A DNA stretch of 64,000 nt from Metarhizium brunneum (Eukaryota; Ascomycota; Sordariomycetes; Hypocreales; Clavicipitaceae). A model generated the notes under the pieces. That model worked only from the letters and a program-made list of their open reading frames with translations. It made no database searches and was not told where the DNA came from. Positions 21,844-57,033 of the stretch are shown piece by piece. Position numbers and translations under genes: made by a program. The stretch's first letter is position 1; every line of letters starts with the position of its first letter. The stretch is taken from positions 124,001 through 188,000 of the forward strand of contig NC_089424.1 in assembly GCF_013426205.1 (NCBI RefSeq), in the 5' to 3' direction.

Positions 21844-23430
21844 TCATGCTTTCCTCGGCGTCGGTCTCCTCGACACCAGCAACCTGCAATCCCTGTCCGG
21901 CCGCTGCGGCGCAAACACAATGTGACAATGCGAGGGCATCATGACGGGCGTACCGTTTCCATCCACATTGTGCGGACCGTACATGGCATCCTCTGGTAGG
22001 CGGATATCAAACGTATTCAGCACGTTGGCGAGAATCGTCATAATTTCCATCCAGGCCAAGTTCCTTCCAATACAGCTCCTCGGCCCGTACGAAAAGGCAA
22101 AAATATTCCGCTTGGCATCTTCGTTTCCCAAAAATCGCTCGGGCCAGAAACGATCCGGCTGATCCCACACGTCTGGGTGGTTGTTCATGGCCATGAGGTT
22201 GAAGGCGATGTGCGTTCCCGCCGGCACACGGTAGCCCTGGAAGGACATGTCCTTGCTGCACATGCGAGGCATGAAACCCGACGTGATGGGCGCAAAACGA
22301 AACGTCTCGTACACAAGAGCCTCGAGATACGGCAAGTGCTGTTTGCAATCGGTATACGATATGAGGTGGTCGGCGCCGAACCGCGAGCGCACTTGGCCGA
22401 CGGCTCGGTCGAGCACGTCTGGATACAGCGTGAGGAGATGGAACACCCACGTCAGCGACGCCGACGTTGTCTCGCTCCCGGCCAGCTGCATTCCCACGCT
22501 TTCGGCCTGGACCTCGAGCGGGCTCATTTTAATCTTCGAGTCCGGGTCCTCGGCGTCGATGAAGGCCTGGAGCATGTCGGCAGGCGTCTTGTCGTCTGGG
22601 TTCTCGTCGAGCAGCTCTTTGCGCTGCCGCACCGACTCGCGCGCGTATCCGACAAAGTCGTCGTATTTGCGCAGCCACGGCCGCACCAGCAGGGATAGTG
22701 GAAAGCGCAGCAGGATCCGGAAGTTGATGCTGATGCCAATGTACACGGCCGTGGCGGCGATCCAGTCAACCACGGTGCTGCTGTCCGAGGTGGCTTTGTC
22801 GACGCGCCCAAACGCCAGGGCGCTCATGATGTTGAAGGTCGCCAGCTGCGTGTCATTGCGGTAATTCAATTCTATTGTCCTCGTATCCTTGTCCCTATCT
22901 TTGTCGCCTGACGCTGCTGAGTCTAGCTGCTCATTCCACTTGTGCATCATCGAGACGGCGCCGTACTGTAGGACTACTTGCTCCATTCTCGCGAGGTAGC
23001 TGGGACTGTTGAGGTAGGGGCCAATCTGCCTGCGGCGCTGGCTGGCCAGACGAGGCTCGCTGAACGTGACAAGATTTTTCATCACGGGGTCGCTGAGGCT
23101 CTTGTAGATGTCCATCTTGCGAGAGTCCAGGGCGCCAAGGACAGCGCGAGCATGGGCTGGATTGCTGAGGGTGATGGTGTCGGGCTTGGAAATGTAAATG
23201 TCCCCGTAGGTGTGAAAGTCGTCGAGGGCATAGCGGATGACATTTTTGGGCAACCGATTGCGAATGGCCCTCAAGGCCGTGATTCTCGCGACTTTTGGCC
23301 CAGGAATAGATCGGAGGGGCGATAGAGTAAATGCGTACAGGAGCTTGGCTAGAATCCACAGAAAGCTGAGCGTAAGGATCAAGCGGAAGCCATCATCTTG
23401 AACCAGGCGAAGCTTGTCTTGCAGAGGCAT
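21844..23430 (-). CDS. helB3: Cytochrome P450 of the helvolic acid cluster (HelB3-type by position)
   Basis: A single exon encodes 528 residues from the ATG at 23430. The frame stays open eight more codons upstream but has no ATG. It contains an anchor (about 15-34), SIPGPK hinge, I-helix AGSETTS, ExxR in ETFR and haem loop FSYGPRSCIGR with Cys at about 453. It lies between the SDR and an acyltransferase, the same trio and order (SDR, P450, acyltransferase) that I recall for helC-helB3-helD1 in A. fumigatus, hence the name. The gene ends about 200 bases from the convergent helC gene, and it shares an upstream region with the acyltransferase gene starting at 24300. Its exact oxidation position cannot be read from sequence. 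Confidence 0.85.
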   Translation of the reverse strand: MPLQDKLRLVQDDGFRLILTLSFLWILAKLLYAFTLSPLRSIPGPKVARITALRAIRNRLPKNVIRYALDDFHTYGDIYISKPDTITLSNPAHARAVLGALDSRKMDIYKSLSDPVMKNLVTFSEPRLASQRRRQIGPYLNSPSYLARMEQVVLQYGAVSMMHKWNEQLDSAASGDKDRDKDTRTIELNYRNDTQLATFNIMSALAFGRVDKATSDSSTVVDWIAATAVYIGISINFRILLRFPLSLLVRPWLRKYDDFVGYARESVRQRKELLDENPDDKTPADMLQAFIDAEDPDSKIKMSPLEVQAESVGMQLAGSETTSASLTWVFHLLTLYPDVLDRAVGQVRSRFGADHLISYTDCKQHLPYLEALVYETFRFAPITSGFMPRMCSKDMSFQGYRVPAGTHIAFNLMAMNNHPDVWDQPDRFWPERFLGNEDAKRNIFAFSYGPRSCIGRNLAWMEIMTILANVLNTFDIRLPEDAMYGPHNVDGNGTPVMMPSHCHIVFAPQRPDRDCRLLVSRRPTPRKA

Positions 23431-24299
23431 GATGGATGCTCTTCTCTTCACCACACGAACTCAGAGCGCGGGTTGGCGTGTTGGACTCGAGGCTGGTCGG
23501 TCACCCCATCAATGACTTGAGCAAGCTGTGTGTCTGGCGGTCCCCGAATCACGGCATGGGACTGTGTTCAATGCTGCTGCTGGTGCTCAACTCGTCTGGT
23601 CAAGTTGCATTGATTCGACTGCCTTGACTCTTCCCCGTCGTTACTCCAAATGTTGCACGCACGCCCTGGCGTGAGACTACGAGGTATCAAGCTCTCGGGT
23701 AGTCGCGGTATCATGGCCGGAGAAATTGAACATGGCTCACCGTATCTAGTTTCCATGACCAACAGCAATGCGACGCTTCAATCTGCGATTGTGCAACACA
23801 ACACCAGACACTTGACCAGTCAATTGTTGCCAATGCTTTTTACGATTCACGAGGCTGGCCCCGCGGCATCGCGCCCCCACCCAGCTGAATCTCGTGCGGC
23901 AAAGCACGCCCCAAGCCACTTGCAAGGGTCAAGGGGTCAATGTGTCTTGTTCTTCGGCCGTTGGACGTAAGACGGCACTCTTCATTCGGCCGGTAGCAAA
24001 ACTGGAGAGCGAAGCTTCTTGTTCCAATTGACATGAGCTTGCGCCTAGAGGAGCGGTCAGGAACTTTTGGTCGATACCCCGCCTGGTCCCTTACACATTG
24101 CTCTCAAGCTTGGAGAAGCACCAGACGTCTCTCCCATGATCTGGCGTTGTTGACAAGGAGGGGGCAAAAATTAAAAAAAAAAGAAGATTCTCAGAGGTCT
24201 GAAAAATACCGTGGCAGCAATTGTACACCAAGAAACAGTCCCGTAATCGGCCGTGGCATGGGCAAACCTTGCATTCCCAATACGGCTCCATCCTTCATC
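23431..24299. promoter_or_regulatory. Shared divergent promoter region, P450 / acyltransferase
   Basis: An 870-base gene-free stretch lies between divergent cluster genes. It holds a single CTTGACC half-site at 23813 and a GGTCAAG (reverse orientation) at 23598. These match half of the tandem motif seen in the other cluster promoters. An A-rich run lies at 24171-24182. Confidence 0.45.
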
Positions 24300-25760
24300 A
24301 TGGAACAGGCCTGGTCGAATATCGAAAGCGCCCATTTTGATTTGTCGCCTCTGGACATCATCAGTAGCCACTTGTACATTTCCAACGTGTTTTTCTTTGA
24401 GAATACGCAATCCGCGCGCGACTGGCTGCCAGAAGAACTGCTGAAGCAGAGCCTCTACGATGCGTTGCGCGGCTTTCCCATGCTGTTGGGCAGACTGCAA
24501 CGCGGTTGGGGAAACACCATGAAGGTCGTTGTCGACAAGGACGCCCTCAACCCTCCAAGCTGGGAGGTATCCGAGACTGCTGCCCTGAGCTTCCGCACCT
24601 TGAAGGCAGAGGGTTTTCATCGACGTCTTTGGCCCAAGGGCATACGAATTGCGGAACCGCAAATTGCACGCACCGCAGGCGATGCATCCAAGCTTGTGCG
24701 CGTTCATGTCGCTCGCTTGGCTGACAACAGCGGCGTCGCCATCGTCCTTCGCATCGCGCACGCTGTTGTCGATGCCAAGGGCGCCGTCGCCTTCATGAGG
24801 CATTGGGCAGATTGCTTCCGCCGACGCAATAATGTAGTAGTTTCCGCCACCGCTTCGCCGTCTCCTCCGCCGCAGACGTCTGCCGCACTTGTCTGTCGCC
24901 GAAGTGTCATGTATGAGAAGCTCTCGCAAGACGCTCGCCCACGTCCACTGCCGTGGTACATGTGGCCTCTGTCGATGCTGTTGGTGGCAGTCGTTTCGCT
25001 GCTGGGTCTCATCCTCAAAAGAAACCTCACCGCGGGACGCACAAGAAGCCACCTGTTCCGAGTACGTCGTGACAAGCTCGATGCGGTCAAAAGTCTGGCG
25101 ACAACAGGGGCAAAGCCGTCTAACGGCATATCCTACAACGACGTGCTCGTTGCCATCTTCACAATAGCATACGCGCAGTGCACGATGCAAGAAAAGTCAG
25201 CCTCGTCACCGTCATCCAGGGGTGGCATTTTCCGGCGAAAACCACCACAGGCCCGCGCCATTGTGCCTTGTGACTTTCGACATCGCCTCGGCGTACCCGA
25301 GGGCTATACGGGAAACTGCGCCGTGGGCTTGTTTGTCACGGCACCGTCGGAGACGCTGCTGCGGCCCATGACGGAGACGAGCGTCATGGAGGTGGCGCGC
25401 TTCTCGAGAAGCACCACGTCGGCGGCCGATGGGGCGACGATTGAAAAACTGATACAGCGCGCAATGAGGTCGATTCAGCTTTTGGGCGACAAGGTTCGCA
25501 TCCTTTACTCGTTGATGATCTGCCAGGCCTTTTCGAACCAGAGCCGTTTGCCGTTTTACGAGGTGGATTTTGGCGTTGGGAGGCCGGTATTTGTGAGTCC
25601 CATGGCATATCCGAGAACTGTGGCCGTTATTGTGCCACCGCCGCCGTCCCTGGCCATGGGCCACGACGTGTTTTTTGTGTATTTGACGCTGGAAGAGTGC
25701 CAGATGAGCAGGGTGCTTGGCAATGGGGGATTCCAGTCTTTTGCTGAAGTGATTTATTAG
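24300..25760 (+). CDS. helD1: Fusidane O-acyltransferase (HelD1-type by position)
   Basis: A single exon encodes 486 residues from the ATG at 24300, which opens the conserved N-terminal region. The open frame continues upstream without similarity. It belongs to the BAHD-like fungal transferase family related to trichothecene 3-O-acetyltransferase. The catalytic motif HAVVD is at about 154-158 and the structural DFGVG motif at about 423. It transfers an acyl group from CoA to a hydroxyl on the fusidane nucleus. In A. fumigatus one HelD acts on the C-16 hydroxyl and the other on the C-6 hydroxyl. I assign number 1 from its place after the SDR and P450. A hydrophobic stretch (about 222-240) is unusual for soluble transferases and could give loose membrane contact. 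It is intact, intronless, and converges with the dehydrogenase gene. Confidence 0.85.
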   Translation: MEQAWSNIESAHFDLSPLDIISSHLYISNVFFFENTQSARDWLPEELLKQSLYDALRGFPMLLGRLQRGWGNTMKVVVDKDALNPPSWEVSETAALSFRTLKAEGFHRRLWPKGIRIAEPQIARTAGDASKLVRVHVARLADNSGVAIVLRIAHAVVDAKGAVAFMRHWADCFRRRNNVVVSATASPSPPPQTSAALVCRRSVMYEKLSQDARPRPLPWYMWPLSMLLVAVVSLLGLILKRNLTAGRTRSHLFRVRRDKLDAVKSLATTGAKPSNGISYNDVLVAIFTIAYAQCTMQEKSASSPSSRGGIFRRKPPQARAIVPCDFRHRLGVPEGYTGNCAVGLFVTAPSETLLRPMTETSVMEVARFSRSTTSAADGATIEKLIQRAMRSIQLLGDKVRILYSLMICQAFSNQSRLPFYEVDFGVGRPVFVSPMAYPRTVAVIVPPPPSLAMGHDVFFVYLTLEECQMSRVLGNGGFQSFAEVIY

Positions 25761-26020
25761 TAAAAAAGGCGTCTGGTATCCTGTATATATCTTCCACCAT
25801 GGCCTCAGAAATAACCCACTACGATTACTAGAATTCATTGGCCGCTATTGACCGGTGGCTATTGTGAAACTAACAAGTCTGGTGCAACACTTCTAAACCA
25901 CGCTGTGCTTGGACAAAGTATCTTGCAGCTTGCCAGGTTGGACACGAAATATTGTGGCGTAAAATATAGAGCGCTTGAATGATGTGAAATAAGAGTTCAA
26001 AGGTCTTTACACTACGAACG

Positions 26021-27763
26021 CTACACGGCTATAGAACCAGCCATGTGATTTACGGCAATGTAAGCAAATGTCAACGCGGGACCTAACGTCGCTCCAGCCC
26101 CGGGATATGTCCTGCCCATAATACTCGCCGTGGTATTTCCAGTCGCATATAAGCCCTTGATCACAGACCCATCGCTTCGTAAGACCCGGGCATGTTCGTC
26201 CGTCACAAGTCCGCCTTTGGTACCTAAATCGCCGGGCACAATAGGAACCGCGTAAAATGGCGGCGCACTAATGGGTCCTAGGTTAGGATTGGGCTGAACC
26301 TTTGGATCTCCAAAGTAGTTATCGAAAACGTTGCCACCCCGGCCAAAATCCGCATCCACGCCATCTTTCGCCATGCCGTTAAACCGAGCCACGGTCGATT
26401 CGAGCGCCGACGGTTTAATGTCGATCTGGGAGGCTAACTCGGCTAGGGTATCAGCGCGGTAAATATATCCGTTTTCTAAGCCGACTTTGGCTTCCTGTCG
26501 AGGCATAAGAGACCCAAGCGAGTACTTCTTGCGGTGGTTTGTATCAAGGATCAGCCAGCCTGGAATAGCCTTGACCTCCTGGTTGCGCCTGTATTGGTTA
26601 TGCCCACAGTCTACGTATGGCGCGGACTCGTTCATGAACCGTGACCCAGTCGAGTCGATGATAATACTATAGGGACGCGCACGTTCCTGAAGAGCAAAGA
26701 AATATCTCCCTAGAACAGGGTCAAGAATTGTTGGACCCCACCAGGCCTCGTCCATGAGGGCCGTCGCCGCCCCCAGCTTTATACCGGCTTGGATCGCGTC
26801 GCCCGTGTCTCCCTCGGGCACGCTCGTCCATTCGGTGCTTGCTGGCGCCGGGCCATATCTGTCCCTCAGTTCCTTGTTATGCGCGAAGCCACCCGCGCAG
26901 AGCAATACGCCGCGCCGGGCATGAATCCTGCGGAGTTCACGATGCCCACCGTCGCTGCTTGTCTGCTGCACGCTTGCGCCAACCACTGTCCCATCCGGCG
27001 CTTGTATAATGTCCACCAGGCGCGCGTTTCGCCAGATGGGCACCTGTGATTGTTGTCCCAGGTAGAGAAGCTGTCCGACGAGCGACTGTCCCATAGTCGC
27101 GGGTGCCTGGCCTCGCAGCTTGAGCCATATGCCGCGACACATGACGCTCATGGCCTTGCCAAAGTCTCTGAAGGACGATCCCAGCCTCGTGACACTGCTT
27201 GCCTCGTCTGTGAAGAGGGGCGGTGGCTGTCGCGGGCGCGCCCGTAGCAGCGACTGCCACTTGTCGATGCGATTCAGGTCAAAGACGCCTGGTTCGATGG
27301 TCCTGCCAAAGTGCGGCATCGCACCCGGTGACGTGGGATAGTAGTCTGGGCAGCCGCGGCTCAGGCGCCAGTTGAAGCCCAGCGTCTGCAAGAAGCGAAC
27401 CATGTGCGGGCCTTGGTCGAGGTAGGCGAGCTTCCGACTTGCTGACGAGGCTGGGCCGGCATCATGACCTATGACAGCCTCCATGTATTTCAAGGCATCT
27501 TGCTTGTTGTCACGAATGCCTGCAGCCTCGGCAAGAGGGTTTTGCGGTATCCATAGCCCGGCACCCGAGTAGGCAGAGCTGCCGCCGAGCTTGTCGTTCT
27601 TGTCGACGAGGAGCGGTTGCAGGCTGTGGAAGCGCGTGCGCAGCGCAGCGGTCAGGCCGGCAGCTCCAGCGCCGACGATGAGGACGTCGACTTCTTCATC
27701 ATAGGGTCCTTGTCCCGAGTCGACGGCCTTGGAAGACGTGAATTTCGACAACATGTTCATCAT
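26021..27763 (-). CDS. helE: 3-ketosteroid 1-dehydrogenase, HelE
   Basis: A single exon encodes 580 residues. The FAD-binding motif VGAGAAGL is near residue 31 and is followed by a [10 protein letters not shown] segment typical of 3-ketosteroid delta-1-dehydrogenases. Near the C-terminus [11 protein letters not shown] and a [13 protein letters not shown] segment complete the FAD_binding_2 fold. A Tyr in the PYSIIID region and the C-terminal YPGAG are expected in the active site. In helvolic acid biosynthesis HelE inserts the C-1/C-2 double bond in ring A. Bacterial relatives act on steroids; fungal copies are rare outside fusidane clusters, so its presence strongly supports the cluster call. 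It shares an upstream region with the second acyltransferase gene, with which it is divergent. Confidence 0.92.
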
Positions 27764-28635
27764 GGACTTTGCTGTTGCGGCATGAAGTGGAGGGTCATGG
27801 ATGAAAGAGGTCTCCTTTTTGCGAATAGCGTCATGAGACGGGCTGGAATAGGGTCAACTGGTGTTCATGTTGCATGGCATGCCGCGGCAAGAATCGGCAG
27901 GTGCATACACCACAGACGTGCCAATTGGACCTTGTACTCGACGCCTGTGAGCTTGGCACGCATTATGCAACTTGACTTGACCAAACTAGACACGGCTCCA
28001 CGCCAAGAGGAGAGTTCTGCTTATCCGAGCACGGAGGAATTCTTGGTCAAAAACCGTTGACGCTTGCATGTGACAAGGTACGGAGTCGGCACATGCAGGG
28101 GTTTCGGAATACTAGCCCGAATATCGCCAAGACGGCACCTTGGGGGTCCACACCTGCGTTTTCGGGAAAAGCTAAGCTTTCAGCTGCCCGGAAATGTGGG
28201 TCACTGTCCATCTCCGCAGATCCGCGCCCAGCCCCATCTACCCTATCTGCCCTTCAGCTGGCGGCATTCTTGTCATCTCCGGCAACGGCGGGGTGAGCAC
28301 AACAAGCACGGGTGTCTTAGCTGGCTTGCGATGCCCGCTGATGTATCCGCGCATTATTCCGCGTCATTTCACGTCTGGCGGAGGAAAGGAAAGAAGAGAA
28401 AAGAAAAGGAACGCACATACTGACACCAGACCGTGCTAGCATCTCATCCCACTATCCAGTCTGGTCCAACCAACGCGTGCATGTGCGCCCAGCAACCTGG
28501 CCGCAGCCTCTCGAGTGACCAGCAAAGGCTAAAGCCGCCATTTGGATGAAGCATCTAGGAACCCCTTTTGTAACCACCATGGAGTGAGCTCGATAATTAG
28601 CCCAACACTCGAGCATCTCTTGACGTACATGCACC
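27764..28635. promoter_or_regulatory. Shared divergent promoter region, helE / acyltransferase
   Basis: An 870-base gene-free stretch lies between divergent cluster genes, almost the same length as the other divergent cluster promoter at 23.4-24.3 kb. CTTGACTTGACC lies at 27971-27982, about 210 bases from the helE start. A purine-rich run lies at 28378-28413. Confidence 0.55.
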
Positions 28636-30108
28636 ATGGAAGATTTTATCAAGCAGCCCTTGCGGGCTCAAACGTTCGCCCTGTCCGCTTTCGATATGCA
28701 GGGATCATTTTCCAACATCCCATATGCGTTCTTCTACGGGAACAGGGGCCAAGATGGGAAGCAAAAGGAATTCATGCCCACTACCCTCCTGAAACAGTCA
28801 CTGGCACAAACACTCGAGTCCTTTCCGATCCTTCTTGGCCATATCAAGGCTACCGCAAGATGCAAGCTGCAAATCGACCTTGATCCATCGCACATCAACT
28901 GTCCAGACTTCCGCGAAACCATCCTGCCAAACGACAGCAACGTTTCTTTTGCGACTCTTGAAGCCGCAAACTTCTCGTGGAAGTCATGGCCCGAGGGCGT
29001 CGCGACCGTAAAGCCGTTTGCCATGCCGCACGACACCACCGGCGACATCAAGCTGCTCAACGTTCACGTGGTGCGTCTCCGCGACAACACGGGCCTCATC
29101 CTCTTCGTCAATTGTCCGCACTACGTCTTTGACGGCGCGGGCTACTTTGCCTTTATCAAAGAATGGGCTTCCAAAATGCGCTGCGCTGCTTCCCAGTCGT
29201 TGCCAAAGCCCGGCACCGAGTACTGCCACGACCGGACCTGCATCCAAGAGTACCTGACGGCGCGTAAAAGACCTCTCGACCCCGTATCCAACGCCATCTA
29301 CGCGACGGCCAATTTCCTCTGCGACGCCATGACTTGGCTCTCGCCCGTCCACCTGGGACGTCTGCTCGGCAAGCTGGGCAGTCTGTCGCCCCCCGGTCAA
29401 GCCCACCTCTTCCACATTACCCAGCAGGCTCTCGACAGCCTGCAGAAATCGTCCCAGGAGCATCTGCCAGAGCACGTCGCTCGCCTGAGCACCAACGACC
29501 TTCTCGTCGCCCTAGTGGGCAGAACCTATGTCCAGAGCCAAAAGCAGCCGGTTCCGAGGGCGGGCTGGTTCAGCCCTGCGCCTCCCCCCGAGACACACTT
29601 CTCCGTTCGGATACCCTGTGATGCGCGGCCCCGGCTAGGAATGAAGCACAACTTCACGGGGAATCTTCTCGTGCCCGTTCTGATGAGGGACACCATGGAG
29701 GACTATGGCCAAAAGACCACGGCGGCGTCCTTGGCCAGATCGGCACTCCAGGTGAGGAGGTGCGTTGGCGATGTCGACGCCGCCCTCGTGAGCGGATACC
29801 ACGACGTCTTGGGCGAGCACCCGACGAGTTACATGCGGCCGCTGGCGTTTGCGGCCTCTCACACGACCACGTCCATGGTGGCGACGAGCCAGGTCAGGTT
29901 CGGGCTGTACGATGCGGATTTCGGCTTCGGCAAGCCTGCCTTTGTGTCGCTCACGCCCTTGTTCGAGGGCGCGTATACCATGGCGGCGTTTTTGCCGCCG
30001 CCCCCGGGCAAGGATGGCGTGTATATTCTGCTGACAACGAATAAGGACGCCATGGCTGGTGTGGTTGAAAATGACTTTTGGCGGCAGACTTGCGAGTTAG
30101 TTTGGTAG
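28636..30108 (+). CDS. helD2: Fusidane O-acyltransferase (HelD2-type by position)
   Basis: A single exon encodes 490 residues. It is the second BAHD-like acyltransferase of the cluster, with HYVFD at about 162-166 in place of the textbook HxxxD spacing HHAVxD, and DFGFG at about 428. It is clearly homologous to the enzyme at 24300 in length and motif order but well diverged, so the pair is not a recent duplication. It acylates another fusidane hydroxyl; HelD2 in A. fumigatus acetylates C-16. The number is assigned from its position between the dehydrogenase and the last P450, the mirror of the helB4-helD2-helE order I recall. It converges with the P450 gene, leaving a 211-base interval containing a CT-rich tract. 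Confidence 0.85.
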   Translation: MEDFIKQPLRAQTFALSAFDMQGSFSNIPYAFFYGNRGQDGKQKEFMPTTLLKQSLAQTLESFPILLGHIKATARCKLQIDLDPSHINCPDFRETILPNDSNVSFATLEAANFSWKSWPEGVATVKPFAMPHDTTGDIKLLNVHVVRLRDNTGLILFVNCPHYVFDGAGYFAFIKEWASKMRCAASQSLPKPGTEYCHDRTCIQEYLTARKRPLDPVSNAIYATANFLCDAMTWLSPVHLGRLLGKLGSLSPPGQAHLFHITQQALDSLQKSSQEHLPEHVARLSTNDLLVALVGRTYVQSQKQPVPRAGWFSPAPPPETHFSVRIPCDARPRLGMKHNFTGNLLVPVLMRDTMEDYGQKTTAASLARSALQVRRCVGDVDAALVSGYHDVLGEHPTSYMRPLAFAASHTTTSMVATSQVRFGLYDADFGFGKPAFVSLTPLFEGAYTMAAFLPPPPGKDGVYILLTTNKDAMAGVVENDFWRQTCELVW

Positions 30109-30319
30109 CAAGTAGTGCAAAGTACAAAATTGACATGTTGCAGAGTATTCATCGTCATGCTATGTTGTGAACTAAGTTCTCTTGTTACTATGCTGCTCTT
30201 TTTTTTATGTAAAGTGATTCGAACTGGTCTAACTCGCCTCTCCCTCCGTCTGTCTCTCTCTCTCCATCTCCCTCCATCTCTCTTTCTCTTTTTTTTGCCT
30301 CTTCTCGGGGATCCTCCAT
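30109..30319. repeat. Pyrimidine-rich tract between convergent genes
   Basis: The plus strand from about 30236 to 30300 is almost wholly C and T (TCTC and CCCTCC runs ending in a T8 run). It lies between the convergent 3' ends of two cluster genes, where both transcripts should terminate. Confidence 0.5.
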
Positions 30320-31951
30320 CTAGGCACTCGCTCTCTTCTTAATCACCATGCGACAGTCCCTGTCTGGATTGGCCGGCATCGTAGCCACACCCAGCTTTGT
30401 AGGCATGATCTTGGGACGACCATCCGCATCTACATTCTCCGGTCGGAAGATGCTATCGTCCGGAATAGAAATGTCGTACGTATTAAACAAGTTGGCCAGC
30501 GTGACCATCATGACCACCCAGGCGAGATTCTTGCCAATGCAAACTCTGGTGCCGTACGCAAAGGAGAGCATGTTGCGCTTGGCCTCGGCGCTGTCGTTGT
30601 TGCCGCCGATGAAGCGATCAGGCTTGAAATCAAAGGGGTCCTCCCAGGTCTCGCGATGCACATGGGCTGCGCACTTGTTGGTCACGATTTCCGTCCCGGG
30701 GGGGATGTAATGGCCCTTGACAGTGATGCCCCGTTGATGGGAGATGCGTGGGAAGGATGTGCTTGCGGTCGGTATGCAGCGCAGCGTCTCGTAGATGCAT
30801 GCCTCGAGGAAGGGCAGTTTTGCGCGACTCTCGGCCTGCGTAATAACGTGGTCCGGGGGGAACTCACTGCGGACCTCGTTGACGACTCTGGTGAAGTAGT
30901 TGGGGTACAGCAGTAGAAAGTGAATGACCCATGAAATGACGGACGATGTGGACTCGGATCCTCCCACGAGCATGCTGATGCTCTCCGTCTGCACCTCGCG
31001 ACTTGTCATGCGGATTTTAGAGTCGGGCTCTACCGAGTCTAACAAGGCTTGCAGCAAGTCGACGGGCTTCTTGTCGCCTCTGTCGAGAAGTTGCTTGCGT
31101 ATGGTAATCGAGTCCCGACTAAACCGGGCGAGATCGTCGTACGACTTCTTCAGGCGCCGGGTGAGGCCGGAAAAGGGCCAGCGCTTCAGGACCGGGAAGT
31201 AGTGGTTCAGCAGCATGTAGGTGAGCGTATTGTTTACCCAGCTTGTGTAGTCCAGATTTGTGTCACGCAACGCGTGAAAGTCTCTCCCGAAGACGAGCAC
31301 GCCGGTGATGTCAAACATGGCCAGCTGCGTGTCGATGCGATAATTGACGACGGTGGTGTCGGCATGGCCTGCCTCGGCTGCGGCCTTGTCTATGGCCTTG
31401 TTCCATCGCTCCCTGAGTGCCAGAAACCCCTTTTCGAGAATCTTGTGCTCCACCTTGGCCAAATATCCGTAGTTGAAAAACGGATGAAGCTGGCGGCGTC
31501 TACGGTTCGCCTCGACGGGATCCGTGAATGTCGACACGTTGGGCACCCCCTCGTACTCAAAGATGCGATACATGTCTGTTTTCCGAAACTCGCCCACCGA
31601 CAGGACGTTGCGGGCATCTTCCGGGTCGCAGAGGAAGACGGCGTTTGGCTTGGCCACGTATACATCGCCATACGCGTTGTAGTCGGCCAAGGCAATGTCT
31701 GAAGCTTTGCCCGTGATAACGGCCCAGGTTCCCCTCTTGGACGTAAGTCGCGAGGCCATGGGGCCCGGAATATGTCTCAATGGAGATAGGAGCCGTGCAT
31801 AGGCGATTTTCCACGTCGCGTAGGCCACGACTAGACAGAGCAGCCAAGCAGTGTAATTGGCCTGTTCGATCCATGACGGCCTGTGACGTGTCTTTTCCTC
31901 CAATATGTGGTATAGGCGAAAATACACGCCTTGGGTCGACAGAGAAGTCAT
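30320..31951 (-). CDS. helB4: Cytochrome P450 of the helvolic acid cluster (HelB4-type by position)
   Basis: A single exon encodes 543 residues. It has an N-terminal anchor (about 31-54), HIPGPM hinge, I-helix GGSESTS, ExxR in ETLR and haem loop FAYGTRVCIGK with Cys at about 471. The haem loop (VCIGK rather than R/NCIGR) sets it apart from the other three P450s, so it is the most diverged member of the cluster set. It marks the right edge of the cluster. The number comes from position next to the HelD2-type gene. A HelB4-type enzyme would act on the side chain, but that assignment is not readable from the sequence. Confidence 0.85.
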   Translation of the reverse strand: MTSLSTQGVYFRLYHILEEKTRHRPSWIEQANYTAWLLCLVVAYATWKIAYARLLSPLRHIPGPMASRLTSKRGTWAVITGKASDIALADYNAYGDVYVAKPNAVFLCDPEDARNVLSVGEFRKTDMYRIFEYEGVPNVSTFTDPVEANRRRRQLHPFFNYGYLAKVEHKILEKGFLALRERWNKAIDKAAAEAGHADTTVVNYRIDTQLAMFDITGVLVFGRDFHALRDTNLDYTSWVNNTLTYMLLNHYFPVLKRWPFSGLTRRLKKSYDDLARFSRDSITIRKQLLDRGDKKPVDLLQALLDSVEPDSKIRMTSREVQTESISMLVGGSESTSSVISWVIHFLLLYPNYFTRVVNEVRSEFPPDHVITQAESRAKLPFLEACIYETLRCIPTASTSFPRISHQRGITVKGHYIPPGTEIVTNKCAAHVHRETWEDPFDFKPDRFIGGNNDSAEAKRNMLSFAYGTRVCIGKNLAWVVMMVTLANLFNTYDISIPDDSIFRPENVDADGRPKIMPTKLGVATMPANPDRDCRMVIKKRASA

Positions 31952-33652
31952 TTTGCGTTGCCAAAATCAGACCGAGACGGAGAGAAACATGGAACAGAGT
32001 GGCTCAATTGACAAGCTGCCGTTCCTTTTCCGCCAAGGACGGCAGAATGAAGGAAATAGAATGTGTGTAGGGAGCTGACTTCAAGGTTGGAGGTGCGGCT
32101 GACTTGCACTAAGCGTCGTAGTTACATTAAATCTTCTCCTTATTATTTTGGCGGTAGAAACGAAACTTGACCTTGAACCAGAAATGTAGTCAATGTATTT
32201 CCCCGATCACACCCAACCCTGGGGTGTGTGTAGTGAGAGGGGTAAGCGGGGGAAGATTTAGAAATTTCGCTACATTGTACAAATCTAGCGCCTTTCCATT
32301 TCAAGTAACTGATGGATATATCCAGTCAACTGGCCTCTTCATGCAAGGTACTCGCGCCTCGTAAAACACCATCTGCCCCAGCTCACAATATACCAAGCTA
32401 GTTAGGCCCACGTGAATGCATGTAACAGGCTTAGCGACCAAGACTTGGACCAGTTGAGCTTATTCGCTTTCCCTTGTGATTGTACCGAGGCCTCGTACTC
32501 CCTTATTTCGCATATTAACTTGGTGTTCGGCTATTCTCTTGACTCCTGTGGGTCTATAAGGGTCCTTCAACCGCTGGTATCCGCCTCTTCATTCCCTCGA
32601 TGTCCCCATGCTTGTTTACATGATGGTCCTCGACAACATCCTCCATGGCATTCTTGTCAAAGGGCGTGGCTTCTGGCGTGCTCCAGTATTTACGACTCCC
32701 TGCAGGGGAAACTATGTCACCAACACCCACAATATGTCATTTAGGCAACGTTCAGGGTTTAGAAGTTGTTGGAGAAGGTATCTAAATGTACCTTATAGTT
32801 CCACGGCACGCCATCCACTACTTGGATGGTACAGATTTGCCCCTCGGGGCTCTTACTACTAGACTTGACTCTATAAATTCATATCCAAAATACCACTTGA
32901 ATCTTCTCAACCCCATCCAATGTAGTGTGGTGTTCTGCACACTCGCTCTTTGGAGTTGTAGTTGTACAAGTCCCATCGACGCCTATCTCCCTCAGTAGCG
33001 ATCTCGGGGGGCATCGAGTAGCGGGCCTGAATCGAGGTGAAAATTGGCGATTTGCAATGAAACCACGGGGGCCGGGATAATATTGCCAGGAGAATAAAGT
33101 GTCTTCTCTCGCACCACCCCGTCGCTCCATCTCTCAGAATACCGTCGGCCTTGATCGAGTCTGCAAGAAACAACATTTTCCCTTGCCAGTAGCACCAACG
33201 AGATGCGATACCGGCAGCTTGAATTTTGGCGTGGTAGCGCGCTGAAGACAGCTTTCTAGCCCACGTCCGTCTCAAACGTTATGATAAAAGTCGAGCTGAA
33301 CGTTTCGAGGGTTCGACATCATCAAAGGTGTACCGACTCATGTCTGCCTTTGGTGATTCCAAGTAGTTCAAGTATGGGTTACACACGGAAGTAGGCCTGA
33401 CAAGACCCTTGGAGATTGAAGCATCATATGCAGACACAAGCTCCACCGTACCAACAGAGCCAAAGACATAGTCTCCTCGTGATCGAGATAGACACGGCTA
33501 ATATCGTATGGGACATTGGGGATTTGGTCCTGGACGAGGTAAAACTCGATGGGTCAACTCAGGATGCCAGTATTCACACAAATGCTCTCCGCCGTCCTGG
33601 CAGCCGCGGGCCATGCGCCACGCTTGCCACGACGAGAGGTCATCGAACCTTG
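31952..33652. other. Intergenic right of the helvolic cluster
   Basis: No gene is supported over 1.7 kb. The left end holds the last P450 promoter. There, 32166-32172 reads CTTGACC followed directly by CTTGAACC, a near-copy of the cluster motif. Open frames here are short and lack recognisable motifs. The mobile element copy at 33653 bounds the stretch. Confidence 0.5.
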
Positions 33653-50294: not shown

Positions 50295-50880
50295 CCGCTT
50301 GAATGGCCATCTTGGTTGACGCCTCTCTGGCGAATTAACACTCAATGTGGTCTCCGTCGGCAATGGCATCACCGAGTCTCTTCATCACGACAGCCGCCAC
50401 ACCTCACCTTGACGAGCATACCCACCCGCATCCGCATCCCACATGCGTCATCGGCGCGTGGGGGAGACCATATTCAACTTGCTCTCATATACAAGTACTC
50501 TAGGTCTCAAAATACCCTGCGGCCGGCACGCCACTGTGACTTGCGACTCGCCTGCTCTCGGAGCCTGCACCGCACGATGGACCGCGATTAGGGACGATGA
50601 GCAGGCGGTATCAACTGTCATGCTCGGGTCGTGCCAGTCAAAAAGTACGGCATTCAATTTGGCATGATGGAAACGCTCGTCCCGGTGCCGAAATCCATGA
50701 GTAGAGAGTTTAGATTCTGTAGAAATGGTCAGCATATTCGACACCCATGACGCCCCCCTAGATGATCGTATCCGATCCGCAAAGCCCCAGTGCCTCCTAC
50801 TGTGTGCCCAACAGGCAAATGCCGTGCTGCACCAAAAACAACTAACATGTGTAGCTGGTACACTGGAGACCATGTTCGAA
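50295..50880 (-). pseudogene. Polyketide synthase ketosynthase remnant
   Basis: Fragments of a type I ketosynthase domain are recognisable in order on the minus strand. They are a GVMGVEYADHF segment (about 50,710-50,745) and the active-site region SMTVDTACSSSLIAVH with the nucleophilic Cys (about 50,590-50,640). An ESKLNMVSPT segment (about 50,460) and a VVMKRLGDAIADGDHIE segment (about 50,340-50,390) follow. Stops and frame changes separate the pieces. It belongs to a fungal highly reducing PKS or PKS-NRPS and is long dead. The rest of the synthase is missing. Confidence 0.75.
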
Positions 50881-51519
50881 TCGTCCTCGACAATAGTGCT
50901 CAGATATCATTTAAAGATTTCTTGGGGGCCATTGTCAGCGACTTGGTTGGGTTATTCTAGAATCTAGATTAGTCGCTCACTGTCCAAATACGACGAAACA
51001 TGCATGGTCGGTTCGTGTATGACGAACAACAAGTCGCTATATGACGGTATTCCGTGTTGATGAAAGCTCCTACTGCCGCACCACATGCTGAACCAACGCC
51101 AGCCCATGTGCCACGATCCATCGTTAGCTATGTAGGCTTTGATTTACTAGTTGGCCCTGCTTGGCGATGAAGACTTCTCGAAGGGCGGCGCAGTTTTACG
51201 TGCCCATTTGCATGATGGAGCCGCCTGCGAGGGAGTAGTTAGGGTAGATGTCGTCTTTGGATGCGCCCCAGGCGGGGATCATGGAGAAGGCATAGGCGTA
51301 GTCAACATTCGTAGGGCTTATGAGGGCTAAAGTGCTGTTCTTTCATCAACTCTGGCAAGAGGCAAGTCATAATAATTGTCTGATTAAAGCTACATAGGAG
51401 AGAGAAGCTAAGGTCTGGAGTCAACCAGTATTCAATAGAAGCAAGTGTAATCGCAACAACACCAGCGTCCCAACCGGCTCTGACGAAGCCAATTGTTCTG
51501 GAAGACATCGCCTAATAGT
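50881..51519. other. Intergenic, no gene recognised
   Basis: No supported coding sequence is present. The left part may contain further decayed PKS DNA that I cannot align. Confidence 0.45.
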
Positions 51520-52476
51520 TCAGGGAATTGAGGTCGGCTTAATTTTCTCATCCCAGCCTGTGATGTCGTGTTCTGGCCGCCCAGCCCACTCCAGCAGCGC
51601 TTCATAGTCTCTACAGGTGTGTTGCACATCCAAATGCCCCAAAGCCTTTTTCCTCTCTTCTACCCATTTATATGGCATCGGCGCAACGTCACCACCACAC
51701 ATGAGCGTCTGCCGGAGTGAGTCAAAGCAATGGTCAATATGTTCCGGTGCAAGAATCGCCTCATTAATCACTGGGTTCTGATCGAATCCTTTAGTGTGAC
51801 CAAAGTAGATGTGGCGGATTGAATCCAGGCAGTGCATCTCGTGAAAGACGCTAATTAGAACCGGAAAGTGGTCTTCGTCGCCATTCAGTGGAATCGTCTG
51901 GTTGACGAGCTGATCTGCCGAAGACTTGGGAATGCGTACTACCGTGCGTGGGTAGAGCGTCTTCCAGGCATCATCCGCAGCAGTCGAGTTTCCCATGTAC
52001 TTGGTTTTCTGGCTACCGAATCCGCTGGTGAATAGCACTGTCTTGTACCGGATTGCTTCTTGGAGCGGTGCTAAATTGTTGGTGTGTGTTGTCAGTATAA
52101 AGGCCGATAATTCCCATTTCTCAAAATAAGAGGAAATAACCAACGTACAGTATAGAGATTCTGGAAATATAGGATTGGATGGGCCCCGAAGAGAATACAT
52201 GGAAATCAGAAAACCCAACAAACACACGTTTAGAACGACGGAGCAAATGAGGACAGCGGTCCGGATAAGCCCGTACTTGGATGGTGCATCATGTCTTGAC
52301 CGGTGGGTTTTCTGGTCAAGGAAGCTCCCATTTTCACACAACAGGTGGTCTTCATCAGATGAAGAAGCCTTTTCGTATGAGTGATGGTTGCGAGAGGCAA
52401 AGATTTCATCGGCCGTAGACTTCATGGTCCTGAGAGTAAAACGCGACCAGAAGGGGTAATGGCCGTTAGAGCCCAT
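51520..52476 (-). CDS. UstY-family (DUF3328) oxidase of the RiPP locus, gene 1
   Basis: Two exons, 52476-52149 and 52070-51520, give 292 residues. The intron 52071-52148 (GTACGT donor, CTGAC branch, TTTAG acceptor) is 78 bases and happens to keep the frame open if retained, which would add 26 residues. The predicted order is a polar N-terminus, one membrane span (about 72-94), a conserved APLQEAIRY-like segment just after the intron, then HEMHC at about 186 and HIDHC at about 220 with LMCGGDV. These two HxxHC motifs define the family and are thought to bind the metal. UstY proteins oxidise precursor peptides (cyclisation, hydroxylation) in ustiloxin, phomopsin, asperipin and cyclochlorotine pathways. 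It is transcribed divergently from the precursor gene 570 bases away. Confidence 0.88.
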   Translation of the reverse strand: MGSNGHYPFWSRFTLRTMKSTADEIFASRNHHSYEKASSSDEDHLLCENGSFLDQKTHRSRHDAPSKYGLIRTAVLICSVVLNVCLLGFLISMYSLRGPSNPIFPESLYCTLVISSYFEKWELSAFILTTHTNNLAPLQEAIRYKTVLFTSGFGSQKTKYMGNSTAADDAWKTLYPRTVVRIPKSSADQLVNQTIPLNGDEDHFPVLISVFHEMHCLDSIRHIYFGHTKGFDQNPVINEAILAPEHIDHCFDSLRQTLMCGGDVAPMPYKWVEERKKALGHLDVQHTCRDYEALLEWAGRPEHDITGWDEKIKPTSIP

Positions 52477-53045
52477 ATTTTCTAATGAAATGTGTACGTG
52501 GTTCTAAGCCAGAATCATGAAACATGGAGAAATATGGAGTGAAGAGAAACAAATCGAATGGAAACTGACCACTTCTAGTCCACGGCTGGTCAACAGCTAG
52601 CACCTGACCATGTGCTTGAAACATGTTATCTATCACGAATGTGCTTGATTCTTAATGGAGAAAACTCTGCATCTGTATGCTTACTTGTGTGTCTTAAATC
52701 TGCGCAATAATCATGCATAGTATTATTACGCCACCTCGTTGCTCGGCAGGATGAGTGAGACATTGTGGCATCAGGGGAGGGGGTCTATACAGTGTGACTT
52801 TAGCTATTGTAGGTCCTGCTTTGACTACTATCCCATGTGAAATATTAATACAGCTCCATGTGGATTCCTGGAATTCAAAATTTCGCAAACCCACTACCAC
52901 TCCTAGTTATTATATTCTGCTATTCGTGCCGCGATAACCTTTTTGGAAGAAAAAAATCGAAATCAACACGGCTTTTACCTTGATACGGCATGCCTCACCT
53001 CTCCATATTATATCTCTCTTTGCTAATATATAATCTTTAGAAACA
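52477..53045. promoter_or_regulatory. Shared divergent promoter region, UstY gene 1 / precursor
   Basis: A gene-free stretch lies between the oxidase gene and the peptide precursor, consistent with co-regulation. TATATAATC-like AT boxes lie at about 53005-53036, immediately before the precursor ATG. No specific regulator site is recognised. Confidence 0.5.
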
Positions 53046-53457
53046 ATGAAGCTCTTGGCTCAGGTTATTGCTGTCACAACCCTGGCAACATCAGCTCTAG
53101 GAGCCCCTGTCGTGGGAGCGGATAAATCCAACCTTGAGGTAGAATATTTCCCATGGAATGAGTCGGTCTAATATTAACTCACCAATCTAGGCTCGCAACC
53201 CACAAGGCTCTTTTATCTGGGATTGGGCTAAGAGCGAGGCGCACAAGAATGAAAAGCGAACACCCCAGGGCTCGTTTATCTGGGACTGGGCCAAGAGCGA
53301 GGGGCACGAGAATGAAAAGAGAGCACCTCAAGGCTCGTTTATCTGGGACTGGGCCAAGAGCGAGGCGCATAAGAATGAAAAAAGAACACCCCAGGGCTCC
53401 TTCATCTGGGACTGGGCTGACGGGACGAGCGCTGACCATAAAAGCACTGAGGAATAG
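53046..53457 (+). CDS. Secreted RiPP precursor with four PQGSFIWDW core repeats
   Basis: Two exons, 53046-53138 and 53191-53457, give 119 residues. The 52-base intron (GTAGAA donor, CTAAT/TTAAC branch, TCTAG acceptor) joins in phase. Residues 1-19 are a signal peptide (MKLLAQVIAVTTLATSALG), followed by a short leader. Four near-identical repeats then follow, each containing PQGSFIWDWA. Repeats 1-3 continue with KSE, a H/N-rich spacer and NEKR. A Lys-Arg pair closes repeats 1, 2 and 3, as expected for Golgi Kex2 cleavage. Repeat 4 ends in a different acidic tail without KR. Period is 21 residues. Spacer residues vary (A/G, K/E) while the core does not, which shows selection on the core. With three UstY genes around it, this fits a dikaritin-type RiPP precursor. 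Known dikaritin cores contain Tyr; this one has Phe and two Trp. I do not recognise the product. Confidence 0.9.
53197..53426 (+). repeat. Four tandem 63-base coding repeats in the precursor
   Basis: The unit CCACAAGGCTCTTTTATCTG and its continuation recurs at about 63-base intervals, starting near 53200, 53263, 53326 and 53389. Synonymous changes are present (CAA/CAG, TTT/TTC, GAT/GAC), so the units are not a very recent duplication and have been kept alike at protein level. Confidence 0.85.
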
Positions 53458-54937
53458 GCCGCCGCAGAGCGTGAGGCAGGTGGACTTTTTGTGTGGTGAC
53501 TGCAGATGACCAATAAAGATTGCCAGGCGGATGTTGCTATTTGTTGAAGAATACAGGGGCCAAAACAGAAATGATGCTGACAATCGTAAGGGACATCACA
53601 CGGGCTTCTTTTAACTTTCAACCGTAAAATGAGTGGGAGACTGTCGATTACGGAAGATTTTTTACAGATTTTATCCAAGGCTCTTATACTCTCGTTAAAT
53701 AGTTTATAGCTGCTCTTTAGTACAAATATCACTCATTACCAGGGTTCCAAACTACCTACTGCTATACACTAGAAGCTACTTTACGCTCTACACGTTTAAA
53801 AAATTCATCATGGGAACGGCCGAAGCAGAACATAGCAAATACGAATCAATAATATTTGCTCCCATATATCGTTCCAGGATCCGGGGATCTACAAGACAGT
53901 ATTTAGGGATTGAAATGGATTTTCTTGCCAGTTATCAGTTGACTTTAGCCTTTCGATACTCCTAATGCAACGACATCATCCCTTGAGAAAGTAGCCCAAG
54001 AGTTGATGATTGCATCTTCTTTGCTCTAACCCCTCACATGGGACTACTGGCTAATGTGATACTGCGGCTACGAATATTACATGACAGTTGCAGATTATGT
54101 ATAATACCCGAGTTTGGTTGCTAAACATTTACCAGTTACCCGGTAACATGACCGCGCCGTTGGACTGAGGCGCATATTGCTCCGGCGTCGTCTACAAACC
54201 GGGGCTAGTAGTAGCCGCCAAGCTAGTTGTCAATACAGTCAGCTTGGACCGTTACAGTCTTGCTTATGCTGATCTTATTATTACTCATTTCATGCCGGCA
54301 CTTGCTTTTTGAGAATAGCCGATGCATGATTACGGGCAAGTTTTCAGTGTGTCATGGATGGTACAAACAAATTGACGGCTTACACGTCGGTTTGCTTGGT
54401 GAGTCGCCTAAGACATCAATGGGCATTTCAATAGTGAAACACATTCAATGGCAGGGCGATCTCTATGCGTGTGCAGCATTTCCCTCTATAGTCCGAAGCG
54501 GCGCCTGAATGTGCAGCAATCAGCAACATTTACGGCTCAAGCTGACCAATCAATGCCGCTTTCATTAGATAATGCTGCGTTTAAAAACGTAATCGACTTT
54601 TCTTTTCTTTTCTTTGGTATCACTAGTGCGGAAGTCTCCCCAGATGTTGCAGTGGCGCTGCGTGAGATGTCATCATTCAAGAAAGCACGAGTACATGAGA
54701 TCGCTCAACTGTCAATGCTATGGACGGGGACCAGCATATGTCTCAGGGTGACCATGCTTTACACTAGTGCTGTCATCACTACTGAGTGCTAGATTTTGGC
54801 CGTCGCGTAGCATTCCGCTGTCACGCCCAGAGCAACCTGCTATCCTGGCGAATGGGGCAACGACCTTAATGTAGAGATCGAACCTTCAATAGCAGATCAT
54901 TCTCTTGGTTTATGATACTTTTTACTGTCTTGGTTAA
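53458..54937. other. Intergenic inside the RiPP locus
   Basis: 1.5 kb has no supported gene. Open frames of about 90-115 codons at 54.2-54.8 kb have no motif and no good start. A degraded gene is possible but not shown. Confidence 0.5.
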
Positions 54938-56028
54938 ATGCAGTCTTTTTCATACGCCATGTGGCATTTTCGTTTACGAGGCCATCAAACCATGGAACAG
55001 GATAGGGCGGATGAGGGTCTTCTTGAGGACGAGGGACTTGACCGAGGTTTCTCTTTGAAGAAATACCCTCTGGTGGACGAATATGGACGGAGATGTATTA
55101 GCCATACCTGGACGTGGATTATTCAGTCAGCCATGTTGGCGTGTTCTTTGACGCTTTTTATCCTTTCCTGGTCTGGCAGGCCATCAGATGAGACCTGTGT
55201 ACGAAAGTTATTTCCATATTGTGAGTCCAATAATTTTCTATTGAGCTGCAACTTGAATCCGCCACGCACCTATATACATGAATATATCTCTGACGGCATG
55301 TTTGACATGATAGCACCAGCATTGGAGGCTGTTGAGTATCATGACGAGACCCTGCCCGGCGCCTTTTTACAACCCTCGCCTTACCGCGGAACACCGACGC
55401 CCGACATCGACGCCCGTTGGGAGAAGCTCTGGGACTGGGGTGCGTTCAATGTACCCGAAGACAAAATTTCCCTCCTGAACAAATCAACGGACGATCCGTG
55501 GCATCACACGGACCCGGGTCATGGCGGCGGCGTGGCCGGACTCTTCTGGGGCTTTCATCAAATCCACTGCTTGGTAAGACATCCCGAAGGAGACGTAGAA
55601 TTGGCCCGGTTGAAACGCTAAGAATTACAAAATAAATGACAGGATCTCCTCCGTCAGATGTCCTATAAAGAGGAATACGAGAAATCTGGGCAGAGGCTAC
55701 CGTCTATTCTCCGCGACCCCGAGGCACTTCGCCGGACGCATTTAGGTCAGCCAGGCCCCTTGTGACACGCCATCTGTCGTCCATGATTCTAACCTGAGAC
55801 TGGCAACATATAGACCACTGCATCGAACTTATCCGTATGGACATGATGTGTCAAGCGGACGTGACGCCATATTTAGTCTTGGACCGCCCGGATGACTCGA
55901 TGGGTGCACTAAACATTGACTTTTCTGTCTTTAAAAGGTGTCGGGATTTTGGCAAGGTTGCAAATTGGATGAAGGACCACATTGCCATATCGAGCGTCAG
56001 GGACAGCGAAGGTCATCACTCGAGATAA
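54938..56028 (+). CDS. UstY-family (DUF3328) oxidase of the RiPP locus, gene 2
   Basis: Four exons, 54938-55220, 55314-55573, 55643-55745 and 55814-56028, give 286 residues (268 if translation starts at the better-placed ATG at 54992). Introns are 93, 69 and 68 bases with GTGAGT, GTAAGA and GTCAGC donors. There is an acidic N-terminus, a membrane span (about 67-86, ISHTWTWIIQSAMLACSLTL region), then the family segment SPALEAVEYHDET, and the two metal motifs HQIHC at about 176 and HLDHC at about 214. The second HxxHC is assembled across intron 3, with its His-Leu in exon 3 and Asp-His-Cys completed in exon 4. It is transcribed in the same direction as the precursor. The likely role is oxidation of the precursor in the secretory pathway. 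Confidence 0.87.
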
Positions 56029-56090
56029 AGTAGTTAAAATTGTATATCAAAGCTACTCTCATTGGTCTTGTTCAGTCTCGGCACCTAATT

Positions 56091-57033
56091 CTAGCTTGAA
56101 AAATTCCTCTGTGGGGGGAAAAACCGAGCCTTGCGAGTGTGTGCCCAGTCTTTAATAGCATCAAAGTTGCGGCACTGCTTTGTGATGTTGAACTGAGGCT
56201 TAAAAACATCCCATTCCGGGTGCCATGTCACCGTCATTACCCCAACATCGGCGTGGCACAGAAGTGTTTGGAACAGATAGCTGAAGCAATGATCTGCATG
56301 ATCCTCCGGATCCATGGTGCTGCCGCCTGGCTTGCCGTTGTCGCGGTCCATAAAGAACGAGGTTCGAAGATGATTCTGCCCTTGGAGTGATTAGCAAAGA
56401 CACCAATATCTCTTTCTTGGCACCGAAATGGGAAAACTTACGAGACAATGCAACTGATGGAAAACTTCAATCATGACAGCATAGCCGTCTTGAGGTCCGT
56501 ACGCCCTTGCAGTGCGTCGTCCACCTGGAAGATTCTGCATCTCCGCCTCACTTATTACACTGATGGTATTCTCAATCTTGCCCTCCCAGACGATATCCAC
56601 GTCCGGGTTATGGCGTGAGTAGGGGTCAATGCGGTCGCTATTTTTGTTTGTAGAGAAAGTCCCTGCGGTGTATCAGTATTCACGGTTTGTTGGTGAGCGG
56701 ACTGTCATATTTGCTGGCGTAGGGTACATACATTCCCCCCACGTTATTGGTGCCCCGAGAAGTTTTTCTACATAATGACAGTTAAATGCGGACGAAATGG
56801 CTAATGAAATCAGGATACTAATTAAACGAACCACTAAAGCATGGCGAGCAATTTTGTGCGTCCATAAAATACAAATTGAACAAGCCGACGGCATAGATGG
56901 CCATCACGAACATGTGGAACACCCAGGGGAGCCACGCTCGAGTTGAAGAGCTGGTGCTGCCCGTTTTGTCAAGGATTTCACTAGAATTCATGTCGACCTG
57001 GTCGACTTGGTGGTAAGCTTTTGAAAACAACAT
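56091..57033 (-). CDS. UstY-family (DUF3328) oxidase of the RiPP locus, gene 3
   Basis: Four exons, 57033-56835, 56767-56732, 56662-56442 and 56375-56091, give 246 residues. Exon 2 is only 36 bases. Donors are GTGGTT (weak), GTATGT and GTAAGT; the coding sum is a multiple of three. There is one membrane span (about 34-54). The conserved GAPITWGEW junction is created by intron 2, and the metal motifs HQLHC at about 147 and HADHC at about 178 are present. Translation could instead begin at an ATG 14 codons downstream (56991). It lies tail-to-tail with gene 2, 62 bases apart. It is the shortest of the three, and the three are clearly diverged from each other, suggesting separate steps on one peptide. 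Confidence 0.83.

What the first reader, a model, noticed from the sequence alone, without database searches (positions are those of the whole stretch)
51520..57033. Candidate undescribed fungal RiPP cluster: Trp-rich repeat precursor with three UstY oxidases
The sequence shows a secreted precursor with four invariant PQGSFIWDW cores divided by KR sites, and three diverged DUF3328/UstY genes within 5.5 kb, one sharing a promoter with the precursor. UstY plus Kex2-repeat precursor is the established dikaritin layout (ustiloxin, phomopsin, asperipin). I recognise neither the core nor a matching product. No tyrosinase, methyltransferase or transporter is visible in the locus, so it would be a minimal pathway.
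Basis: partly seen in the sequence, partly recalled or inferred. Interest (0 to 1): 0.92.

Follow-up and report, generated by a model that had tools for sequence, protein, structure and literature searches.

The report
Fungal Trp-rich peptide RiPP cluster
An insect-killing Metarhizium fungus carries a compact four-gene set that probably makes a small secreted peptide whose tryptophan-rich core is oxidised by copper enzymes; the kind of pathway is known, but I found no described product for this core.

Summary
At 51520-57033 lie a precursor (119 aa, one intron, leader, four exact PQGSFIWDW cores, three KR sites) and three open, mutually diverged UstYa (PF11807) genes, each with two HxxHC motifs. 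The genome is Metarhizium-like (7 contigs, 37.8 Mb). The core looks selected: at least seven substitutions among four copies, all synonymous. Two metagenomic precursors keep PQGSFIWEW after KR with other flanks; one appears to share a contig with a UstY-A orthologue. UstY-A and UstY-B orthologues lie on apparently the same contig in five other fungi from four classes. The same genome has a separate ustiloxin-type locus (EDYFIGADKR repeats, tyrosinase hit nearby); here no tyrosinase was hit on the contig and the precursor has no tyrosine. Best reading: a dikaritin-type (KEP + UstYa) RiPP pathway in which Kex2 frees about 19-mers whose core UstYs oxidise, perhaps cross-link. Product, expression and chemistry are untested. 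KEP+UstYa loci are common (1,758 in one survey), so this is a new member of a known kind; its distinction is the conserved Tyr-free Trp-acid-Trp core. Limits: no precursor was found in those five fungi, and UstY-C's orthologues were not searched.

The parts
53046..53457 (+). Precursor gene (KEP): exons 53046-53138 and 53191-53457, 119 aa, stop at 53455-53457
   Evidence: homologues P0001 (M. majus MAJ_09815), P0002, P0053
53046..53102 (+). Probable ER signal peptide MKLLAQVIAVTTLATSALG (by eye and hydropathy, no predictor run)
   Evidence: leader of metagenomic P0053 shares 11 of 34 residues
53139..53190 (+). Intron (GTAGAA..CTAG) between leader exon and repeat exon
   Evidence: other splice choices were open; this one keeps the whole leader and all four cores
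53200..53226 (+). Core copy 1 PQGSFIWDW
53254..53259 (+). KR, presumed Kex2 site 1
53263..53289 (+). Core copy 2 PQGSFIWDW
53317..53322 (+). KR, presumed Kex2 site 2
53326..53352 (+). Core copy 3 PQGSFIWDW
53380..53385 (+). KR, presumed Kex2 site 3
53389..53415 (+). Core copy 4 PQGSFIWDW, followed by a diverged C-terminal tail without KR
51520..52425 (-). UstY-A: exons 52425-52149 and 52070-51520, 275 aa; HEMHC and HIDHC
52426..53045 (.). Intergenic region between the divergent UstY-A and precursor start codons (possible shared promoter)
   Evidence: inference from gene models; no 9-mer shared with the regions upstream of B and C
54959..56028 (+). UstY-B: exons 54959-55220, 55314-55573, 55643-55745, 55814-56028, 279 aa; HQIHC and HLDHC. 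Start uncertain: the M. robertsii record P0003 starts 11 residues later
   Evidence: first intron and start set by alignment to homologues
56091..57033 (-). UstY-C: exons 57033-56832, 56767-56732, 56662-56442, 56375-56091, about 247 aa; HQLHC and HADHC; first intron uncertain

Best explanation
A compact dikaritin-type RiPP pathway of Metarhizium. The precursor enters the secretory pathway, Kex2 cuts it after KR into peptides such as TPQGSFIWDWAKSEAHKNE, and the conserved PQGSFIW[D/E]W core is oxidised by the three UstYa enzymes. The modification I think most likely is a side-chain cross-link that uses Trp, with Phe, Ile or the other Trp as partner; flanks are then trimmed and the peptide is secreted. 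Shown: genes, repeats, KR sites, UstYa motifs, silent-only variation of the core, core conservation in relatives. Inferred: signal peptide function, Kex2 cutting, UstYs acting on this precursor. Conjecture: the cross-link and the residues it joins (about 50% for any cross-link, about 35% for one using Trp). The biological role is unknown; a bioactive or signalling secreted metabolite is the default guess.
For: Core: at least 7 substitutions among four copies, 0 non-synonymous (5e-6 of random trials, 3.5e-5 with transition bias), while the spacer over three repeats does change residues (pN 0.049). Metagenomic precursors P0002 (two cores) and P0053 (one core) keep (T/S)PQGSFIWEW after KR with other spacers; P0053 has a related leader. 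P0002's contig and the longest contig of UstY-A orthologue P0032 are both 4,682 bp, suggesting one contig. Orthologue groups of A (15 rows, 99/100) and B (9 rows, 100/99) are supported in a 32-row tree. A and B orthologues share the recorded contig length in 5 of 7 non-Metarhizium species of the B group: Bisporella, A. ibericus, Apiospora hydei (tags PG997_014140 and PG997_014142), Lophiotrema, Pyrenochaeta. All three UstYs carry two HxxHC motifs, suggested as a mark of RiPP-related DUF3328 proteins (PMC12048977, passages). UstYs are stated to use a dicopper site for oxidative cross-links (PMC12186524, passages). The genome has one Kex2-type P-domain locus (2 adjacent matches).
Against: No transcript, peptide or knockout evidence. 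No precursor was found in the 5 named species that share A and B; the only named precursor hit is M. majus. Monosporascus, A. tubingensis, A. niger, Knufia and Paraphaeosphaeria (5 of 10 named non-Metarhizium species of the A group) have no B partner among the 21 hits; Apiospora aurea and Kalmusia have B but no A hit. One search used a composite query, and both searches reach only relatives that share exact words. The core lacks the Tyr used in ustiloxin, phomopsin, asperipin and epichloecyclin. Trp is no commoner in KEPs near DUF3328 genes (20.5%) than in others (24.5%) (PMC7329392). UstY-C's orthologues were not searched (cap reached). Structure models are of moderate to low confidence (mean pLDDT 61.9 and 70.8).
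Confidence: 0.78

Rival explanations
1. A KEP giving linear secreted peptides (pheromone, signalling or antimicrobial peptide); the UstYa genes are coincidental neighbours or act on another substrate.
For: 6,120 of 7,878 KEP genes lack DUF3328 neighbours, some verified KEP peptides are linear, and the yeast mating-factor profile has a WXW motif, as this core does (all PMC7329392).
Against: The genome has its own WC..PGQPCW repeats on contig C1 (3 matches), and this core lacks PGQP. In PMC7329392 3 of 216 pheromones and 0 of 227 mating factors had DUF3328 neighbours. UstY-A and UstY-B orthologues co-occur across four classes, and a metagenomic precursor appears to share a contig with a UstY-A orthologue.
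Confidence: 0.11
2. The three UstYa genes tailor a non-ribosomal or polyketide product of this region, which holds NRPS and PKS pieces, and the precursor is unrelated.
For: Several UstY-B homologues are named 'Cyclochlorotine biosynthesis protein O'; cyclochlorotine is a non-ribosomal peptide (recalled). NRPS pieces at 6.8-9.8 kb and a ketosynthase fragment at 50.4-50.9 kb lie in the window.
Against: The ketosynthase piece is a short fragment, the NRPS pieces are over 40 kb away with a triterpene-type cluster between, and UstYs flank the precursor on both sides.
Confidence: 0.04
3. A silent or decaying remnant: the locus once made a RiPP but no longer does in this fungus.
For: Position near a contig end (C3:175-181 kb of 4.77 Mb); a ketosynthase fragment lies beside it; copy number varies (4 cores here, 3 in M. 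majus P0001).
Against: All four genes read open with plausible introns; core variation is silent only; four other UstY-A records, three of them named Metarhizium, are 96-99% identical over the aligned part.
Confidence: 0.06

Closest known systems
Ustiloxin/phomopsin-type dikaritins (YxIx core); in this genome the EDYFIGADKR locus on contig C1 near 5.22-5.23 Mb
   Same: Kex2-repeat precursor beside UstYa gene(s)
   Different: Core PQGSFIW[D/E]W instead of YxIx; no Tyr; no tyrosinase hit on the contig, whereas the C1 locus has a tyrosinase hit about 4 kb from its UstYa hit
Asperipin-2a
   Same: KEP-derived, UstYa-dependent; the passages seen name a tyrosinase requirement only for ustiloxins and phomopsins (PMC7329392)
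   Different: Cross-links from Tyr side chains (PMC9233826) and one UstY gene; here no Tyr and three UstYs
Victorin
   Same: Multi-core precursor RiPP cyclised without Tyr, Phe to Leu (PMC9233826, passage)
   Different: Other core; victorin is chlorinated and has cluster-encoded peptidases, none of which I saw here
Umemura's Trp-containing KEPs with DUF3328 neighbours (e.g. type P-3)
   Same: Trp in the repeats, DUF3328 gene nearby
   Different: P-3 is listed for Fonsecaea, Cladophialophora, Galerina, Psilocybe and Coprinellus, not Metarhizium. Supplementary lists could not be opened, so this exact precursor may be in them

Membership tests
Dikaritins (RiPPs from KEPs cyclised by UstYa homologues; definition in PMC10512285) | Secreted precursor with repeated cores separated by Kex2 sites | tested here: met
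   Four cores, three KR sites; leader judged by eye and hydropathy only
Dikaritins (RiPPs from KEPs cyclised by UstYa homologues; definition in PMC10512285) | UstYa/DUF3328 homologue with two HxxHC motifs next to the precursor | tested here: met
   Three PF11807 genes, two HxxHC each
Dikaritins (RiPPs from KEPs cyclised by UstYa homologues; definition in PMC10512285) | Core peptide oxidatively cyclised by the UstYa protein | not testable with these tools
   Needs mass spectrometry and gene deletion
Ustiloxin/phomopsin subtype | YxIx core | tested here: not met
   Core is PQGSFIWDW; no Tyr in the precursor
Ustiloxin/phomopsin subtype | Tyrosinase gene near the precursor | tested here: not met
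   15 tyrosinase matches in the genome, none on contig C3
Ascomycete alpha-pheromone precursor | WC..PGQPCW-type repeat (motif recalled) | tested here: not met
   Not at this locus; 3 matches on C1 instead
UstYa enzymes of a solved fold | Fold shared with a solved structure | tested here: inconclusive

The most novel reading that the evidence does not exclude
The locus founds a Tyr-free class of UstYa RiPPs whose conserved FIW[D/E]W core is cross-linked through tryptophan by a co-inherited UstY-A/UstY-B pair (plus UstY-C in Metarhizium). This would be a UstY chemistry for which I found no characterised precedent in the searches, spread as a module over four ascomycete classes.
Probability: 0.33. 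Interest if true: 0.75.

Novelty: new member of a known kind. Interest (0 to 1): 0.5.

Why it matters
One review counts five reported dikaritins by 2022 (PMC10512285, passage) against 1,758 candidate precursor genes with DUF3328 neighbours (PMC7329392). A small set (one precursor, three oxidases) with a conserved Tyr-free core is a clean test of whether UstY enzymes can act on tryptophan and how several UstYs divide the work. It also adds a testable peptide to the secondary metabolism of a biocontrol fungus.

Tried and rejected

Literature searches. Searches found no paper naming this core or the six locus tags tried. Nagano 2016, Ding 2016, Kessler 2020, Sogahata 2021 and two 2025 copper-UstY papers are known here only through other papers; the last two were looked up and are not held. 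PMC7341153, PMC13123250, PMC9602595 and PMC5088523 were seen as passages only.
Full report
WHERE. The window is C3:124001-188000 of an assembly of 7 contigs, 37,771,916 bases. The best-matching proteins of this locus are from Metarhizium. M. brunneum ARSEF 4556 has a chromosome-level assembly that was used as reference for seven pseudo-chromosomes of another strain (PMC11457142, passages); that the window is M. brunneum is my guess.

OBSERVATION. Confirmed, with refined gene models. The precursor reads MKLLAQVIAVTTLATSALGAPVVGADKSNLEARN-PQGSFIWDW-AKSEAHKNEKR-T-PQGSFIWDW-AKSEGHENEKR-A-PQGSFIWDW-AKSEAHKNEKR-T-PQGSFIWDW-ADGTSADHKSTEE. A genome search with it finds only its own two exons. The three UstYa genes are 26-32% identical to one another. 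UstY-B's first intron and start, and UstY-A's start, were set by homologues; for UstY-B the M. robertsii record starts 11 residues later. UstY-C's first intron is uncertain: three splice choices are open.

MORE THAN CHANCE. A degenerate core pattern occurs four times in the window, all in the array, and in none of 100 shuffles four times or more. Among the four cores five of nine codons vary, at least seven substitutions, all silent; random placement gives this in 5e-6 of trials, 3.5e-5 with a 2:1 transition bias. The spacer of the three full repeats does change residues. So the peptide, not just the DNA repeat, is conserved.

RELATIVES. A search for the precursor among 5.8 billion proteins gave 2 hits at E up to 10 among 393 candidates: M. 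majus MAJ_09815 (three cores; 97% identity over aligned residues, 76% in the local alignment of the search) and metagenomic P0002. A composite search added P0053, a 216-aa metagenomic reading with a related leader (11 of 34 residues) and one core. P0002 and P0053 carry (T/S)PQGSFIWEWYGDVADEK after KR, and by eye both include unspliced intron sequence. The conserved unit is PQGSFIW[D/E]W. In these relatives a Tyr follows the core directly; in Metarhizium it is Ala and the precursor has no Tyr at all.

THE UstY PAIR. UstY-B gave 21 hits of 1,938 candidates; the composite query gave 30 of 533, 29 of them UstYa proteins and one P0053. In a 32-row tree of chosen rows, UstY-A orthologues form a 15-row group (99/100) and UstY-B orthologues a 9-row group (100/99). 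Of 7 non-Metarhizium species in the B group, 5 have an A orthologue with the same recorded contig length: Bisporella sp. (Leotiomycetes), Aspergillus ibericus (Eurotiomycetes), Apiospora hydei (Sordariomycetes; tags two apart), Lophiotrema nucula and Pyrenochaeta sp. (Dothideomycetes) (classes). Apiospora aurea and Kalmusia had no A hit. Conversely 5 of 10 named non-Metarhizium species in the A group had no B hit. A. ibericus groups with Apiospora, apart from Metarhizium, in both parts of the tree (98/95 in B; 87/91, under the tree tool's star, in A), which hints at horizontal movement but is no test. UstY-C fell on a long branch (3.67), and its orthologues were not searched.

WHAT IS MISSING FROM THE LOCUS. 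Tyrosinase: 15 matches in the genome, none on C3. Of the 10 ORFs scanned, the 8 lying between 36 and 63 kb gave no methyltransferase or transporter family; other ORFs there were not scanned. The nearest features are a dioxygenase N-domain (48.2-49.2 kb) and a ketosynthase fragment (50.4-50.9 kb) on the left and a kinesin on the right. I saw no cluster peptidase, so trimming after Kex2 would need general peptidases. The Kex2-type P-domain matches lie on C1.

IN-GENOME COMPARISON. Around 13 UstYa loci, counting this one, KEP-like arrays were seen at 3: this one; an EDYFIGADKR array on C1 (ustiloxin/phomopsin type, with UstYa and tyrosinase hits nearby); and a QVDVDGVATRSGWGYIKARDEKR array at C3:123.5-124.0 kb just left of the window. 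The scan can miss arrays, so three is a minimum.

MECHANISM. By the dikaritin model (PMC9233826 and PMC10512285, passages) the leader sends the precursor to the Golgi, Kex2 and other peptidases free the cores and UstYa proteins cyclise them. UstYs are described as dicopper, oxygen-dependent enzymes that make cross-links such as Tyr-O to Phe-C-beta (PMC12186524, passages); phomopsin UstYs also desaturate residues (PMC10512285, passage). With no Tyr, Trp, Phe and Ile are the residues of the core I would expect to be oxidised. I therefore propose a Trp-using cross-link or a beta-oxidation at Phe/Ile; three UstYs may mean two or three successive oxidations. This step is conjecture.

STRUCTURE. Models of orthologues (UstY-B type P0003, mean pLDDT 61.9; UstY-A type P0024, 70.8) show one long N-terminal helix, presumably the membrane anchor, and both HxxHC motifs within helices. 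This agrees with, but does not prove, a membrane-anchored metal enzyme.

NOVELTY. In Umemura's survey 1,758 of 7,878 KEP genes lie near DUF3328 genes, with Trp in 20.5% of repeats, no more than in other KEPs (24.5%) (PMC7329392, section 7). Hence a Trp-bearing KEP beside UstYs is a known genome-mining object. This core was not found in print in the searches listed (and the topic searches), which cover open-licence papers only. I file it as a new member of a known kind, with a variant chemistry possible.

Noticed in passing
Left of window start: G000 C3:123547-123993 (L005 9547-9993), repeat tail in window 1-25; UstYa hits at C3:119915-120516, 121913-122411 and window 1430-2029: A second KEP-like precursor with two full repeats, QVDVDGVATRSGWGYIKARDEKR and QVDVDGVATRSGWSYIKARDEKR, beside UstYa hits that I merge to three genes: another candidate RiPP locus with Trp and Tyr in the repeat.
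   Followed up: partly
window 12278-31966: Triterpene cluster of helvolic-acid type by content (squalene-type cyclase, P450s, two transferase-family proteins, SDR, FAD protein). Helvolic acid is known from Metarhizium, where such a region was proposed as a supercluster (PMC5088523 and PMC9602595, passages). It lies between the two KEP loci.
   Followed up: partly
L012 8843-9088 (G000 C1:5227843-5228088), minus strand: EDYFIGADKR repeat array (six cores) near a UstYa hit and a tyrosinase hit: ustiloxin/phomopsin-type locus in the same genome.
   Followed up: partly
window 50448-50906 (-): Isolated ketosynthase fragment (PF00109), probably a PKS remnant, next to UstY-A.
   Followed up: no
window 6770-10862 (+): Pieces of an NRPS in several frames (AMP-binding and condensation matches); whether the gene is intact was not examined.
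   Followed up: no
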